64,000 bases of DNA from Trichococcus shcherbakoviae (GTDB taxonomy: Bacteria; Bacillota; Bacilli; Lactobacillales; Aerococcaceae): positions 1,831,501 to 1,895,500 of the forward strand of contig NZ_OY762653.1 of the NCBI RefSeq assembly GCF_963666195.1, read 5' to 3'. Below are positions 21,730-52,828 of this stretch, piece after piece (position 1 is the first letter of the stretch; every line of letters begins with the position of its first letter). The notes beneath the pieces were generated by a model. That model was not told the DNA's origin. It made no database searches and worked only from the letters and a program-made list of their open reading frames with translations. Made by a program: the position numbers and the translations under genes.

Positions 21730-21803
21730 TCGGAATGACAAATGTCACGCGGAGGATGAGGTCTGTTAAGTCCGAGGAATCCGCTGTAGAATGCAACAAG
21801 AAA

Positions 21804-21849
21804 AGCCCTGCTGCGATAGGAATAGCCTATCGCAGCAGGGCTTTTTTTG
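21804..21849 (+). terminator. Strong terminator after the sensor operon
   Basis: AGCCCTGCTGCGATAGG pairs perfectly with CCTATCGCAGCAGGGCT around a 5-base loop and is followed by eight T residues. It closes the kinase/regulator/binding-protein operon. Confidence 0.92.
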
Positions 21850-21874
21850 TATGGGAATTGAATTTATGCGCAGA

Positions 21875-22030
21875 GATACCCCGCCAAAACCCCTTTGGCG
21901 GGGCAAAATGTCCAAGGGCAACACGAGATTCCCCGCCAAAACACATTTGGCGGGGCAAAACGTCCGCGGACAACACAAGATACCCCTCCAAACCCAATTT
22001 GGCGGGGTATCCCACCGCCAAAACCGCAGT
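21875..22030. repeat. Tandem hairpin array 1, 52-bp period, three units
   Basis: Units start at 21875, 21927 and 21979. Each contains CCCCGCCAAA and TTTGGCGGGG (CCCCTCCAAA in the third) as hairpin arms, with centres at about 21891, 21943 and 21995. Spacers vary but keep GTCC-to-GGAC-like minor stems. No coding role is apparent. It lies between the sensor-operon terminator and the PTS promoter. Confidence 0.85.
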
Positions 22031-32301: not shown

Positions 32302-32436
32302 AAAAGATGAATAGTCGTGAGATATCCATCTTTTAAGTGCACTAGGAGCCGAAAAAGATGAATAATAAAAAGTTATTCATGTTTCCAGGCTAATCAGGAA
32401 CAAAAAAGATGAATAAGAGAAAGTTATTCATCTTTT
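32302..32436. repeat. Tandem hairpin array 2, 51-bp period, three units
   Basis: Three hairpins are centred at about 32318, 32369 and 32420. Arms are AAAAGATG/CATCTTTT, ATGAATAA/TTATTCAT and AAAAGATGAATAA/TTATTCATCTTTT; the last is a perfect 13-bp stem with a 7-base loop. Spacers are unrelated to each other. None has a proper terminator tail except perhaps the last. It lies just 3' of the esterase gene. Confidence 0.8.
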
Positions 32437-33260: not shown

Positions 33261-33390
33261 TCCTCCGGCGAGCGGAGGCTACGCCGGAGGACGCATCACA
33301 TTTAAAGTCTGTGCTCCGATGAGGACAAGCTCGCAGGAGATGAGTCCGCAAGATACCGCTGTACTCCGATGGGAGAACCCTCGCCGGAGG
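33261..33390. repeat. Tandem hairpin array 4, about 50-bp period, three units
   Basis: A G+C-rich region with hairpins centred at about 33276, 33326 and 33376. The first is a perfect 10-bp stem, TCCTCCGGCG/CGCCGGAGGA. The others begin CTCCGATGAG and CTCCGATGGG and close with GGAG. Outer arms ATGTGAT and ATCACAT (33237-33300) embrace the first hairpin. The array lies between the phosphatase gene start and the terminator of the Fe-S protein gene. The surrounding 33125-33490 contains no gene that I can support. Confidence 0.7.
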
Positions 33391-47697: not shown

Positions 47698-48132
47698 AGT
47701 GCGCCCGGCATGGGTGATAACTTGGTGGTGAAAGTCCACTACAGGCTTTGCAGTAGGAACTGTTAGCGAATGACAAGGGTGTCCACCGTGAGGTGGAATC
47801 TGAAGGAAGTCGGACGCAAATACTCGCACTGACGGACAGAAATCTCATATAAGGCTGGTTGGAGACGGACGAGCTTGCTCAACAAAGTGAAGTCCTATAC
47901 TGCACGAATCTCTGACAGTAAATGAGGCAGTGACATGAGTGGAAGGTTATCATTCTTACCCGGGGAGGTCTTATGGACATGAGGAATCATGGAGTAAAGC
48001 TTGCCATAAGAAGTCAGCAGAAGCCATAGTAGTAACCATATGGTTATGAAGGGCTGAACAATAATAATCTTGATAGAAACAAGGAGGTGAATGTATCTCG
48101 GCACTACAGAAAACGTCGTGGTATAGACCAAA

Positions 48133-49493
48133 ATGACGGCTGTCTCCAGAAGGGATAAGTTGGAAACGAAAGAGATATGGAGAAGCGTAGAGAGATACAG
48201 CATGGATATGAGGAAACAAGATGGTATCACGTTAATCGAGAAAATCGCAACACCAAGAAACCTAGTCATTGCCTGCGAGAAAGTCTACAAAAATAAAGGC
48301 GCTGCGGGTATTGATGGCATTACTGTTCAAGAAATAGATGAACATATGGCCAAGTACCAAAAGGCGATCATTGCGAAATTATTAGATGGAACCTATAAGC
48401 CACAACCGGTCAAGCGGGTTTCCATACCCAAAGAGAATGGCAGTATGCGGAATCTGGGAATTCCAGTTGTGAGAGACAGAATTGTTCAACAGGCTATCCT
48501 ACAGATAATAGAACCGTTGGTTGACCCATACTTTTCCAAGTACAGTTTCGGTTTCCGAAAAGGGAGAAGCGCGCATGATGCCATTAAACAAGCCGAGAAA
48601 TACATTGAAGAAGGATATAAAACAATCGTAGACTGTGACTTGAAGAATTACTTCGATATGGTAAATCATCAAAAACTGATGGTGTATCTGAGAGAATTCA
48701 TACAGGACGAGATTGTACTGAAGTTAATCTGGAGTTTTCTTCGCTCGGGAATCATGGAAGAGAATACGTTTATCCAATCTTATAAAGGTACTCCGCAAGG
48801 TGGTGTCATCTCTCCGCTTTTAGCCAACATCTATCTCAATCAGCTAGACAGAGAACTGGAAAAACGAGGTCATCGCTTCGTTCGTTATGCGGATGACTTC
48901 TGCATATACGTCAAGACTCCTCGTGCGGGAGAACGGGTACTGACTAGTGTAACTACCTTCCTTGAGAAGAAATTAAAGCTAACGGTGAATACCGATAAGA
49001 GTAAAGTTACTACCCCCGGTAGTGCTAAATTCCTTGGGTTCACCATTTGGAAAACGATGGGAAAGTCAGAAGCCGTCCTCATAAGACGGCTAAACACAAA
49101 TTTCGCAAACGATTAAAACAGCTAACTAGTCGGAAACGACCGGGCACCTTCCTAGACATAGTGAAAGAAATCAATTTGTACACACAAGGATGGATTAACT
49201 ACTATGGCATTGGTGACATGAAGACCTTTATTAGCAAAACAGCTCAATGGCTTAATCACCGATTGAGACAGCTAATTTGGAAGAGATGGAAAAGAGTTTC
49301 TACCCGCTTTTACGGATTAATGCGTTATGGTATTGGTAGGGAAGAGGCTTGGAAAGTTGCAAATTCCCGTAAAGGCTACTGGAGAATGTCGAAAAACCAG
49401 ACGATTCACAGAGCTATTAACAAAAAAAGGCTGGTAAGTTGGGGTCTGAAAGACCTCAATCAACTATACCAGCACAGATACTTAAGTTATTGA
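48133..49493 (+). pseudogene. Frameshifted group II intron reverse transcriptase/maturase
   Basis: About 450 residues in total. The first frame (48133-49116) carries all RT blocks, including GTPQGGVISPLLANIYLNQL and the catalytic RYADDFCIYV. After KFLGFTIWKTMGK the proper continuation (RSRPHKTAKHKFRKRLKQ, LTSRKRPGTF, GWINYYG) lies in another frame from about 49065 to 49493. The offset fits loss of one base near 49060-49080. Maturase domain X and the C-terminus are therefore cut off. A sequencing error in GGGAAAG is possible; otherwise the outer intron has no maturase of its own. Confidence 0.85.
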
Positions 49494-49526
49494 ACCGCCG
49501 TGTACGGAACCGTACGCACGGTGGTG

Positions 49527-51371
49527 GTGTGCTGTGCAAAGGCACATCGAAGATGGAGGAAGGCCCTCCAATAAGGGCTGTGGCAGGCAGACTTATTAAA
49601 CAACCTAGTGCTGCTGTAGTAAAGAGCTATGGTAGTGAGCAACTATGGAAAAGGCCATAAATAATGGTCATGTAGGTTATGTAGAGATGAACGCAAGTGA
49701 ACCGCTGATGAAGTATCGATAGCGTAAAACGATGTCAAAACTTGAACTTCACCACTCATCAAGGACAAGAGTAGCGACCAAACTGCCTGTTGGCTACTCG
49801 GCATCCGGTATTAAGGCGGCATGAATGCATAACAGGCTTCGATGTGAAACACAGGAACCTAGACAGCAATGATAAACGAAAAGGTACAAGTCACAGAAAG
49901 ATAAGACCGAAAGTAGTGATGTGCTGTATAGGGGCGGAATAACCCGTAGTAATGAAGAAGCTATTGTAATGATAGTGGAGTGAAGGGGTTATATCATTTA
50001 GCTGAAAGTAAAAAGTCAACTGTTAGAAAGCAGGAGGAACAGATGAACAACAGCAAACCTTACATTATTCCCAAAAGGACAGTATTTGAGGCCTATAAGA
50101 AAGCAAAAGCCAATAAAGGCAGTGCTGGAATAGATGGGCAAGATTTTGAAGCATTCGATGAAAATCTATCGGCTAACCTATATAAAATATGGAATCGGAT
50201 GAGTTCGGGTACCTATTTTCCGCCTCCAGTAAAAATGGTTGAAATACCGAAGAAAAATGGCGGTACAAGGACACTAGGAATACCTACGGTATCCGACAGA
50301 ATAGCGCAAACCGTAGTGAAATACTATCTGGAATCATCATTGGAGCCTATTTTTCATAAAGACTCTTACGGATATAGGTCGAATAGGTCCGCTTTAGATG
50401 CAGTAGGACAAGCCAGAACGAGATGCTGGAAATACGATTATGTTTTGGAATTTGATATCAAGGGTTTATTTGACAATATTCCTCATGATCTGCTCATGGT
50501 AGCTGTTCACAAGCACATAAAGGAAGACTGGCTAATTCTCTATATAGAGAGGTGGTTGAAAACACCTTTTGTAAATAGAAATGGTGAAGAGGTCAAGAGA
50601 GAAAGCGGAACACCACAAGGTGGTGTAGTAAGTCCCGTTCTAGCAAATTTATTTATGCATTATGCTTTTGATAAGTGGATGGACATTTATTTCCCAAAAT
50701 CTCCTTTTGAAAGATACGCAGATGATGCAATAATCCACTGTAAATCAGAAATAGAATGCCGGAATATTCTTGAATCACTTGATAGACGTCTAAAACAATG
50801 TGGGCTTGAACTTCATCCTGATAAAACGAAAATTGTATATTGTAGTGATAAAGACAGAAAGTGCACGTATCCTGTTACCTCTTTTGACTTTCTGGGATAC
50901 ACTTTCAAGAAGAGGTTTATCAAAGATAGAACAGGGAGACTGCAATTCAATTTTCTTCCAGCCGTAAGCAAACAGTCGGAGAAAGCTTTCAGAACTAAAC
51001 TGAAAAATCTACAAATACATAAAATGACGGGAAGTACTATTCAAATAATATCTCAAATAATAAATCCCATAGTAAGAGGATGGATTAACTACTTCGGAAG
51101 ATACAACAGAAGCCAACTCAAGAGTTCGTTAGATGTACTAAATAGAAGATTAGTTAAGTGGGCTACTCGAAAATATAAAAGATTTAGAGGACATCCAAAG
51201 AGAGCAAGAGAATGGTTAATAGAGGTGGCAAAGAGAGAGCCCAACATGTTTCCACATTGGACTCTCAAGTTAATGCCATAAGTAAGGTGAGTGATATGAG
51301 CCGTATGAATCGAGAGGTTCACGTACGGTTCTGTGAGAGCATTTAGGTGAAATTCCTAAGTGCTACTCGAC
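49527..51371 (+). mobile_element. Inner group II intron, inserted between domains V and VI of the outer intron
   Basis: A complete 1.85-kb intron. It starts GTGTGCTGTGCAAAGGCAC (fits GUGYG), carries an intact reverse transcriptase, then domain V (GAGCCGTATG to ACGTACGGTTCT, 51299-51332) and domain VI (AGCATTTAGG / CCTAAGTGCT), and ends in CTACTCGAC. The outer intron resumes exactly at 51372. Its reverse transcriptase and domain V differ clearly from those of the outer intron, so it is not a self-copy. Confidence 0.85.
50043..51281 (+). CDS. ltrA: Group II intron reverse transcriptase/maturase, intact
   Basis: A 412-residue multifunctional protein that assists splicing and retrohoming of the inner intron. 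RT blocks include KANKGSAGIDGQDFEAFDEN, GIPTVSDRIAQTVVKYYLE, SGTPQGGVVSPVLANLFMHY and the catalytic FERYADDAIIH. The maturase region (INPIVRGWINYFGRYNRSQL) follows, with a basic tail. No HNH endonuclease domain is seen. AGGAGGAACAG precedes the ATG at 50043. Confidence 0.92.
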   Translation: MNNSKPYIIPKRTVFEAYKKAKANKGSAGIDGQDFEAFDENLSANLYKIWNRMSSGTYFPPPVKMVEIPKKNGGTRTLGIPTVSDRIAQTVVKYYLESSLEPIFHKDSYGYRSNRSALDAVGQARTRCWKYDYVLEFDIKGLFDNIPHDLLMVAVHKHIKEDWLILYIERWLKTPFVNRNGEEVKRESGTPQGGVVSPVLANLFMHYAFDKWMDIYFPKSPFERYADDAIIHCKSEIECRNILESLDRRLKQCGLELHPDKTKIVYCSDKDRKCTYPVTSFDFLGYTFKKRFIKDRTGRLQFNFLPAVSKQSEKAFRTKLKNLQIHKMTGSTIQIISQIINPIVRGWINYFGRYNRSQLKSSLDVLNRRLVKWATRKYKRFRGHPKRAREWLIEVAKREPNMFPHWTLKLMP

Positions 51372-51444
51372 TGAGAGGTCGGAGCCTAAAGGCTCCTCCT
51401 ACTCGATTCGAGACGCAGGGGTGCGGGTCTTAGCTTATGCGGAG

Positions 51445-51685
51445 TGAATCGCTGTGCTCACCGATTCATCACCGATAAAAAACTGTACAGGAGGGTGAGA
51501 TTGTCGAATAGTGGACGGCTATTCGACTAATTAACCTCAGCGTAAGGTGAAATTGTCGAATGGGTGAAATCATTCGACAATTTGATCACAGCATGGAACG
51601 GAATTGTCGGATGTTGCAGTGACATTCGATAATTCTCGCCTAACGTAAGACGAAATCCGCGAATGTTGGAGGTCTATTCGGGAAA
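51445..51685. repeat. Tandem hairpin array 3, about 52-bp period, five units
   Basis: Hairpins are centred at about 51456, 51515, 51566, 51618 and 51670. Arms are variants of AATTGTCGAAT and ATTCGACAATT; the third unit is a perfect 12-bp stem (AATTGTCGAATG/CATTCGACAATT). Spacings are about 58, 52, 52 and 52. The last unit overlaps the 3' end of the leftward gene that stops at 51674. No T-tails, so they are not ordinary terminators. Confidence 0.85.
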
Positions 51686-52828
51686 CCGGCCGCGCCACAC
51701 TTTAATATTTTTATTTCGAGCCGTTTTTTTATTATGTAGCCTCATTTCCAATACTGTGTTCACGCTACTGACAATACCTTTAGCATCGCTGTTGAGGAGG
51801 CTGAGATCCCCGGTCATGACTTCATAACGACTGTCTTCGTAAGGGGCATCGTTTTTCGCGGCCGTGCAGATCGGATAGGTCGTTCCTTCTGCGGGCTCGA
51901 GAATTTTTTCGAGGACAATCTTATGTTGCCAATCATCGCCGAAGTCATAGGTGTAACGGGCTTGGTCCTTCTCCACCAGAAAATGATCATGCAGACATTC
52001 CTCTACTTCAGAGAGGCGAATCTTTCTGGCATTAAAAAAGAGGTTGGAAAAGGGAGACGCATCCTCCTCGATAAGTTCGATGTAGACATTTTTTTGGCGG
52101 ACTCCGTTCGATTTTTGGATCATAAAGTCATGAAGATGGTGGCCTTGCCAATTGAACAGGATCTGGATGATTTTGTGCAGTTCCTGGAATGAGCTGGCGC
52201 TGTTGACCTGAACCTTCCGCCAGACCGGGCCTCTGACGTTTTCAAGCGTGATCTTGAAGGAGTAGATTTGTGGCTGCTTAGGTGCGGCTGGCTTTTTCGA
52301 TTTTCGGGAGGATGGATTCAATAGCTGTGTTAATTCATCCATCTGCCCTTTTATAATGTCATAGCTATCTCCGCGTTCGGGAGACCGTTCAATGAGTTGG
52401 TTGAGCTCTGCCAAGATAGCCTCTGCGGGAGTTAATGTTTTTCTGAAAGTGACTGTGTATTCATCTGGAATATCCTGAACGGAAATGTACGTTGCCGCGT
52501 CACCGGGTTTCTTGAAGTAGTCCTTGAGGGGTGTGCCATTTTCATAGAATCTTTCATCGAAAAGCGAGGTATTCTCAGAGTCTTCGTTGTAAACAAAGGG
52601 ATCTTCAGACACTTGGTCAGAGGCAGGTTGCGGCTGAATCGAGACGCCGGACTGCTTTTTTCCGTTGGAACGTATGATTTGGAAAGAATGATTTTTGGGA
52701 GCCTCTTCCTGGAGGACTTCCAAAATATCTTGATACAGTTGCTCGAATGTGGAATTGTCCTCAATCCGGATTGTGTGAGAAATCGGTTCGGTCAGCAGAT
52801 TTTTTTCTATCGTCATTTCGTAAATCAC
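51674..52828 (-). CDS. Plasmid pRiA4b ORF-3-like protein
   Basis: A 384-residue protein. The C-terminal half (~185-370) is the pRiA4b ORF-3 / IS1096 TnpR-like domain: YSFKITLENVRGPVWRKVQV, FQELHKIIQILFNWQGHHLH and the signature YTYDFGDDWQHKIVLEKIL. The N-terminal ~40 residues (TEPISHTIRIEDNSTFEQLY) look like a degenerate copy of the same fold start, joined by a variable acidic linker. GTG at 52828 follows GGAGG by 7 bases. Function is unknown; such genes often occur on mobile DNA. Confidence 0.82.
   Translation of the reverse strand: MIYEMTIEKNLLTEPISHTIRIEDNSTFEQLYQDILEVLQEEAPKNHSFQIIRSNGKKQSGVSIQPQPASDQVSEDPFVYNEDSENTSLFDERFYENGTPLKDYFKKPGDAATYISVQDIPDEYTVTFRKTLTPAEAILAELNQLIERSPERGDSYDIIKGQMDELTQLLNPSSRKSKKPAAPKQPQIYSFKITLENVRGPVWRKVQVNSASSFQELHKIIQILFNWQGHHLHDFMIQKSNGVRQKNVYIELIEEDASPFSNLFFNARKIRLSEVEECLHDHFLVEKDQARYTYDFGDDWQHKIVLEKILEPAEGTTYPICTAAKNDAPYEDSRYEVMTGDLSLLNSDAKGIVSSVNTVLEMRLHNKKTARNKNIKVWRGRFPE

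What the first reader, a model, noticed from the sequence alone, without database searches (positions are those of the whole stretch)
51445..51685. Five-unit hairpin array with a 52-bp beat, the best example of a periodic hairpin family
Hairpin centres at about 51456, 51515, 51566, 51618 and 51670 give spacings near 58, 52, 52 and 52. Stem arms are variants of AATTGTCGAAT/ATTCGACAATT, and the variations are often matched on both arms. Spacers differ from unit to unit. Three other intergenic arrays in this window (21875, 32302, 33261) have the same 50-52 bp beat but wholly different stems. A conserved spacing with non-conserved sequence suggests that structure or helical phasing (close to five DNA turns) is what is selected. 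This may be an undescribed class of repeat.
Basis: partly seen in the sequence, partly recalled or inferred. Interest (0 to 1): 0.85.

Follow-up and report, generated by a model that had tools for sequence, protein, structure and literature searches.

The report
Hairpin arrays on a fixed beat
The DNA after many genes of this Trichococcus bacterium carries rows of hairpin-forming repeats spaced almost exactly 52 letters apart, and hairpins of quite different sequence keep nearly the same spacing, so the spacing itself may matter although nobody yet knows why.

Summary
The array is real. Hairpin centres lie at 51456.5, 51515, 51566.5, 51618 and 51670. The middle three are one copy of a dispersed three-hairpin element of the genus Trichococcus (15 aligned copies, 14 without internal indels). 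The first hairpin is off the beat and of another stem; the fifth is decayed and overlaps a stop codon. The wider claim largely holds. In 331 intergenic gaps outside the window, 30 hairpin pairs are 49.5-53 bp apart, against none in 20 shuffles. Six stem families, some perhaps related, share a 50-52 bp beat. In sampled arrays the period varies little (51.5, sd 0.85) and hairpin length much (29.0, sd 3.7). At two orthologous sites, different species carry different stem families on this beat. One genome of another genus has beats of 31 and 40-42 bp; together the beats lie near 3, 4 and 5 DNA turns. Classed arrays of the window genome sit after genes, often between convergent ones, none between divergent ones. 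No convincing strand-specific (RNA) signal was found. Best reading: REP/BIME-like elements read as DNA on one helix face. Function is inferred; neutral tandem amplification is nearly as likely.

The parts
51445..51468 (.). hairpin 1, TGAATCG/CGATTCA, off the beat and of another stem; probably not part of the element
51499..51531 (-). hairpin 2 (unit of the three-hairpin element; 11-nt loop)
51550..51583 (-). hairpin 3 (middle unit; 10-nt loop between the 11-nt arms, as in the aligned copies)
51602..51634 (-). hairpin 4 (unit of the element; 11-nt loop, two unpaired positions)
51654..51686 (-). hairpin 5, decayed extra unit on the 52-bp beat; overlaps the stop codon of the neighbouring gene
51485..51649 (-). 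stretch taken for the dispersed three-hairpin element and aligned with 14 other copies; true ends of the element not determined
51674..52828 (-). gene ending at the array: plasmid pRiA4b ORF-3-like protein (PF07929)
49555..51407 (+). group II intron (D1-D4 hit from 49555, RT/maturase ORF 49980-51281, D5 51296-51371) on the other side; absent from the same site in relatives; 3' junction approximate, 5' end not determined
21879..22011 (.). three-hairpin array, CCCCGCCAAA stems, spacings 52, 52; site shared with relatives
32302..32436 (.). three-hairpin array, AAAAGATGAATAA stems, spacings 51, 51
33263..33389 (.). three-unit array, CTCCGGCG/CGCCGGAG type, spacings 50.5, 50; units 2 and 3 imperfect
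   Evidence: my count; repeated in relatives

Best explanation
The array belongs to a set of REP/BIME-like palindromic DNA elements of Trichococcus: mostly two to seven hairpins on a 50-52 bp beat, placed behind gene ends. SHOWN: the beat, its sharing by different stem families, the location, gain and loss of whole units, and different stem families at the same site in different species. INFERRED: the elements act as double-stranded or cruciform DNA. The beat puts every palindrome on the same face of the helix, so that a protein or complex that recognises the shape (a gyrase or nucleoid-protein platform, as reported for BIMEs) can bind side by side and deal with supercoiling where transcription units meet. 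New units arise by unequal exchange between neighbouring hairpins. Selection removes changes of spacing and keeps stems paired, but hardly cares which stem sequence is used.
For: Beat absent from shuffles. Period less variable than hairpin span: 51.5 sd 0.85 against 29.0 sd 3.7 (33 of 36 Trichococcus arrays); 40.7 sd 0.55 against 26.0 sd 3.5 (19 of 25 in G021) (doubled spacings were halved and a main class chosen). TTGTCCGAT family in the DNA held: 77 of 84 adjacent spacings exactly 52; 27 of 30 multi-unit arrays have 52-bp steps, and their 23-nt spacers are only 33% alike between arrays against 26% when shuffled. Locus A1: TTGTCCGAT units in six genomes, GTCGACTGTT/AACAGTCGAC units in four, the latter on steps of 52 in all four. 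Site 32302: AAAAGATGAATAA type in G000, G041 and G005, CTCCGG type in G002. Location of 32 TTGTCCGAT arrays: 17 convergent, 8 ++, 5 --, 0 divergent, 2 unclassed, against 46, 129, 90 and 66 of 331 gaps. Element orientation is mixed relative to genes, as expected of DNA. Whole units lost between species.
Against: No protein is identified and no binding was tested. Adjacent units are often near copies (spacers 19% different), so part of the exactness is inherited through tandem duplication; the TTGTCCGAT units were sought at a fixed length, so loop indels would be missed. All stem families seen at locus A1 are dispersed repeats, so a copied architecture could carry the beat. Covariation is modest. 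Some copies decay to one unit. Exceptions to the beat exist: 58.5, 58, 59, 63.5, 53/48, 88. Only three period classes support whole turns.
Confidence: 0.37

Rival explanations
1. Neutral or selfish tandem satellites. A founding pair of hairpins is amplified by slippage or unequal exchange; DNA polymerase template switching keeps the arms complementary; the beat is merely inherited from the founders.
For: Whole-unit indels between species. Inner units with a hybrid T-T mismatch where some end units are perfect, as unequal exchange predicts. Higher-order repeats such as the alternating spacers at 1265600. Template switching can create and maintain hairpins: PMC8794818 (title and start of abstract in the listing).
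Against: Does not by itself explain why different stems with a different hairpin/spacer partition share one period, nor why spacers nearly unrelated between arrays keep their length. Few small length changes: 7 of 84 spacings are not 52; 3 of these are a skipped unit less one base.
Confidence: 0.3
2. RNA hairpins in 3' untranslated regions that stabilise messages or stop transcription.
For: Arrays start 13-150 bp after the stop codon in 19 of 20 codirectional Trichococcus cases; a terminator was found in between at 10 of 50 gene ends, against 75 of 310 ends in gaps without arrays (crude detector). Stable folds. TTGTCCGAT stems in codirectional arrays: 6 G-T against 1 A-C on the transcript strand.
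Against: All families: 1 G-T against 4 A-C in codirectional arrays; 15-copy element: 34 against 24, of which 18 against 16 distinct. The control on terminator-like hairpins gave 25 against 27, so the test has little power. Orientation mixed. RNA gives no reason for an exact beat.
Confidence: 0.15
3. Non-autonomous mobile elements copied by an unidentified transposase, whose ruler sets the spacing; the host gains nothing.
For: Dispersed copies with a shared architecture, such as the short-loop middle unit. The GTCGACTGTT family is dispersed too, on the same beat, as are two families in G021.
Against: No clean empty site or target duplication was found at the few sites compared; sites are often shared by several species. 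T. ilyis has 11 exact TTGTCCGAT hairpins but no Y1 transposase match. Other transposase families were not tested.
Confidence: 0.18

Closest known systems
REP/BIME elements (repetitive extragenic palindromes, best known in enterobacteria and pseudomonads)
   Same: Extragenic, palindromic, abundant, dispersed, often tandem and regularly spaced (PMC2817692, passages read). Position behind gene ends is recalled for REP, found here for the arrays.
   Different: Units within an array are direct repeats, not alternating in orientation; no REP-like pairing with a Y1 transposase found; one beat shared by several stem families.
BOX elements of Streptococcus pneumoniae
   Same: Intergenic modular repeats in a related order with a variable number of internal units (recalled; PMC3049150 seen only in the listing).
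   Different: BOX is one family with distinct end modules (recalled); here several families share a beat. No sequence comparison with BOX was run.
CRISPR arrays
   Same: Palindromic repeats at fixed spacing.
   Different: Within an array the spacers are alike (19% different), and the repeats vary in arm and loop.

Membership tests
REP/BIME | palindromes in high copy (above 100 per genome), mostly extragenic | tested here: met
   139 places within 3 mismatches of TTGTCCGAT-11-ATCGGACAA in the window genome, control 1; 1 of 32 arrays inside a called gene (crude gene caller)
REP/BIME | regularly spaced REPs in alternating orientation (PMC2817692) | tested here: not met
   regular spacing met; but loops and spacers show units in the same orientation within the listed arrays
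REP/BIME | association with an IS200/IS605-like tyrosine transposase (RAYT) | tested here: inconclusive
   Y1_Tnp in 12 of 13 genus genomes, none in T. ilyis, which has array stems. 11 loci around the 47 Y1 matches were scanned: no TTGTCCGAT or AATTGTCGAAT hairpin beside them, but one CTCCGACGAA/TTCGTCGGAG hairpin, of the CTCCGG type, some 216 bp from Y1 in L200. One IS605-like pair lies beside an element at 411-414 kb
REP/BIME | binding of gyrase, IHF or DNA polymerase I | not testable with these tools
   needs binding or cleavage assays
Known RNA families (Rfam 15) | match above gathering score | tested here: not met
   window: only group II intron parts; array region: 3 weak matches, best 22.7 bits against a threshold of 72; L020, L212, L284: 0 matches
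CRISPR | near-identical repeats separated by unique spacers | tested here: not met
BOX | boxA-boxB-boxC modules | not tested
   no BOX sequence was compared

The most novel reading that the evidence does not exclude
A class of chromosomal elements defined by spacing rather than sequence: tandem palindromes held at a genus-specific whole number of DNA turns (3 or 4 in one genus, 5 in Trichococcus), in which one stem family can take the place of another while a machine that reads DNA shape, or a copying ruler, fixes the beat.
Probability: 0.23. Interest if true: 0.88.

Novelty: new variant of a known kind. Interest (0 to 1): 0.72.

Why it matters
Sequence-based repeat finders treat each stem family apart and so miss what unites them. 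If the beat is selected, it points to an unknown reader of DNA shape, or to a topological role of gene ends in Gram-positive bacteria. If it is not selected, it shows that copying of hairpins alone can hold a length to one base over long divergence. Either outcome is testable in non-pathogenic Trichococcus or in a laboratory reporter, and opens the old question of what REP-like repeats do to a spacing experiment.

Tried and rejected
Claim that the GTCGACTGTT stem is confined to locus A1: an exact-pattern search found one place in 13 genomes, but BLAST with the array finds relatives elsewhere, for example 80% over 220 bp in the window genome at 2227582, and looser matches in held DNA at steps of 52 (L254, L241). 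I dropped the claim and for that reason moved odds from the best explanation and the novel case slightly to the mobile-element rival. Strand test for RNA pairing: G-T against A-C counts conflict, and the terminator control showed no excess, so it is uninformative. Loop orientation against gene direction: 9 of 12 codirectional TTGTCCGAT arrays agree (my count), not convincing. Idea that arrays avoid part of the chromosome: dropped, because the list is cut off (100 of 139 places) and one search shows matches at 2.29 and 2.55 Mb; for the same reason the arrays are those of the DNA held, partly fetched for having them, not all of the genome. One search counted flanking DNA behind the last unit as spacer; its figure (34%) is replaced (19%). 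Similarity of the TTGTCCGAT spacer to the loop of the GTCGACTGTT array at A1: not above that of other arrays. First terminator detector too insensitive, replaced. E. coli comparator: one 50-kb stretch, no similar-arm array, too little to compare beats. Controls: 2 arrays in 300 kb of G018, G022 and G026, one of them a single 52.0-bp step in G022; 9 in 669 kb of 75 diverse loci (75 of the 79), 7 of them inside called genes, with no common period, though one in Alkalibacterium has a 102-bp step; none in 80 kb of G023, G034 and G040. Exact-pattern scan of genome contigs gave 0. Divergent placement: labels two element copies in relatives, and two of 25 arrays in G021, as between divergent genes; the gene caller was trained on Trichococcus only.

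Full report
WHERE IT IS. The window lies in a 2.93-Mb single-contig genome. Its genus is Trichococcus: a protein search names Trichococcus species as closest, and equal contig lengths identify two genus members, G008 and G011, as T. ilyis and T. pasteurii. The array lies between a (-) strand gene with a PF07929 domain, 51674-52828, and a group II intron.

THE ARRAY. Five hairpin centres exist as reported, with spacings 58.5, 51.5, 51.5 and 52. Both strands fold better than all 200 shuffles. The central three hairpins recur elsewhere as a unit. I aligned 15 copies from 14 stretches (window/L007 and L003/L263 look orthologous), with mean column identity 71%; both internal gap columns come from one copy, L009. 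Ten of the 14 stretches came from BLAST matches, which do not depend on spacing; weaker units were kept only if spaced 50-54 or 102-106 bp from another, so this set is partly chosen by spacing, and one further candidate (L185) was left out as another subfamily. Of 36 pairs, 8 show a change on both sides, against 4.5 expected (23 of 500 shuffles reach it); 91.1% of cells pair, against 90.0 in shuffles and 22-46 when slid. Covariation is present but weak.

THE BEAT IS GENOME-WIDE. In 20 even stretches plus the window (464 kb) the pair distances of hairpins peak at 52 and 104, while four shuffles stay at 0-2 in the bins around them; outside the window 17 pairs are at exactly 52.0. In 39 even stretches (780 kb) 26 pairs lie at 52.0-52.4 against 0, 0, 1, 0, 0. 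In the 331 gaps of those stretches, 30 pairs lie at 49.5-53 against none in 20 shuffles. BLAST with the array matches 10 of 12 genus genomes and 0 of 29 others. The commonest stem found, TTGTCCGAT-11-ATCGGACAA, has 65 exact copies in the window genome and 0 to 113 in 13 genus genomes (10 of 13 have it); the listed places all have an 11-nt loop although 8-14 was allowed. It occurs in 4 of 295 genomes of the order, all of this genus.

EXACTNESS. In the DNA held, 116 units in 32 arrays give 84 adjacent spacings: 77 of 52, 3 of 51, 3 of 103, 1 of 59 (fixed-length unit search, held DNA only). Adjacent arms differ by 4.8%, loops by 21%, spacers by 19% (50 spacer pairs). Of 30 arrays with at least two units, 27 have a 52-bp step and so a 23-nt spacer; between these arrays spacers are 33% alike against 26% when shuffled. 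So the length is kept where the sequence is not. Part of this is inheritance within arrays, since neighbouring units are related.

DIFFERENT STEMS, ONE PERIOD. Stems on the beat in Trichococcus: TTGTCCGAT, AATTGTCGAAT, CCCGCCAAA, CTCCGGCGA, AAAAGATGAATAA and GTCGACTGTT; in G001 also CCGACAGA at 104. The first two and perhaps the last may be related, sharing GTC with CGA or GTCGA. In 36 arrays of three genomes 33 fall in the main class after division of double spacings, with period 51.5 sd 0.85, hairpin span 29.0 sd 3.7 and loop 8.8 sd 2.8. Dividing doubles and the class limits narrow the first figure; the raw spacings are, where 22 of 24 arrays of the window genome show only 50-52 or twice that.

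SAME SITE, DIFFERENT STEMS. At locus A1 (L020 8160-8405), downstream of one conserved gene and terminator, G000, G003, G010, G041, G002 and G008 (one unit) carry TTGTCCGAT units, while G001, G011, G005 and G006 carry GTCGACTGTT/AACAGTCGAC units (39-nt hairpin with 19-nt loop, plus 13-nt spacer) on steps of 52: three steps each in G001, G011 and G006, two in G005. G004 seems to keep one such unit, and G000 has AACAGCCGAC beside its array, which reads as a remnant of the other type. Both families are dispersed. At the 32302 site G000, G041 and G005 have the AAAAGATGAATAA type at 51, and G002 has CTCCGG-type units. At the 21879 site the CCCGCC element keeps its place: steps of 52 between such units in G011, G041 and G008 and 104 in G005, besides other hairpins off the beat. 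G003 lacks whole units (52, 102 and 52 bp) at two window sites and one other.

ANOTHER GENUS, OTHER BEATS. G021, one genome of another genus in the same family, has 25 similar-arm arrays in 500 kb; steps are 31, or 40-42, or multiples, with exceptions at 24, 92 and 102. Its 31-bp family gives 136 of 136 adjacent steps of 31.0 in 12 partly overlapping loci; its TGACAAT family 39 of 48 at 40, 7 at 41, 2 at 39.5. Of 76 family genomes only G021 matches these two arrays, but for one short match in T. pasteurii. 31, 40.7 and 51.5 lie near 3, 4 and 5 turns of about 10.3 bp. This is suggestive, resting on three classes.

PLACE AND HOW UNITS ARISE. Of 32 TTGTCCGAT arrays 17 lie between convergent genes, 8 in ++ and 5 in -- gaps, none between divergent genes, 1 in a called gene and 1 at a stretch end; background gaps are 46, 129, 90 and 66 of 331. 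Genes are from a crude caller of my own. In codirectional Trichococcus cases the array starts 13-150 bp after the stop in 19 of 20. In several arrays inner units read TTG..CAT, with a T-T mismatch, while the first unit reads ATG..CAT (643439, 679791, 895475, 1172388) or the last TTG..CAA (894274, 895475): what exchange between two perfect neighbours would leave. Against this, 547942 has the mismatch in all six units and 808552 is mixed.

WHAT IT IS. It resembles REP/BIME elements in place and number, but its units do not alternate in orientation, and a linked Y1 transposase is not shown. It works, I infer, as DNA read for shape at a fixed phase; gyrase binding is borrowed from BIMEs (PMC2817692 passages) and untested. 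Neutral amplification with template switching is nearly as likely; it is the shared period of different stems with different hairpin lengths that favours a constraint.

Noticed in passing
47782-51371: Two group II intron parts in a row: D1-D4 hits at 47782 and 47991 with an RT ORF (48133-49116) and a maturase ORF (49047-49493) in different frames, then a second intron at 49555-51371; one domain V hit was found. The second is absent at this site in relatives.
   Followed up: partly
21796-21850: Terminator-like hairpin whose stem sequence in G003, G011 and G008 is wholly different from that in G000 and G041, while the flanks stay alike.
   Followed up: partly
L293 (G011 C26:314400-315200): A short tandem repeat (TTTGTAGA type) at the stop codon before locus A1, a few copies in several species and many in T. 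pasteurii; each copy brings another TAG.
   Followed up: no
L189:1115-3074: IS605-like pair (TnpB-like ORFs, my reading, and Y1 transposase) beside a copy of the three-hairpin element; seems incidental.
   Followed up: partly
L212:12305-12650 and further G021 loci: 31-bp hairpin arrays with 136 of 136 steps exactly 31 in 12 partly overlapping loci, TAGTTCGT/ACGAACTA stems.
   Followed up: partly
L155:7988 and L226:12391: Paired AAAAAGTCCGGCG/CGCCGGACTTTTT-type hairpins 63.5 bp apart in two species, near six turns; terminator-like.
   Followed up: no
L219:11311: A single 52.0-bp hairpin pair, CTTTCCTTGATA/TATCAAGGAAAG, in G022, another genus of the family.
   Followed up: no
G002 C2:7491-8368: Series of matches to the GTCGACTGTT array, most of them 104 bp apart, twice the beat.
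   Followed up: no
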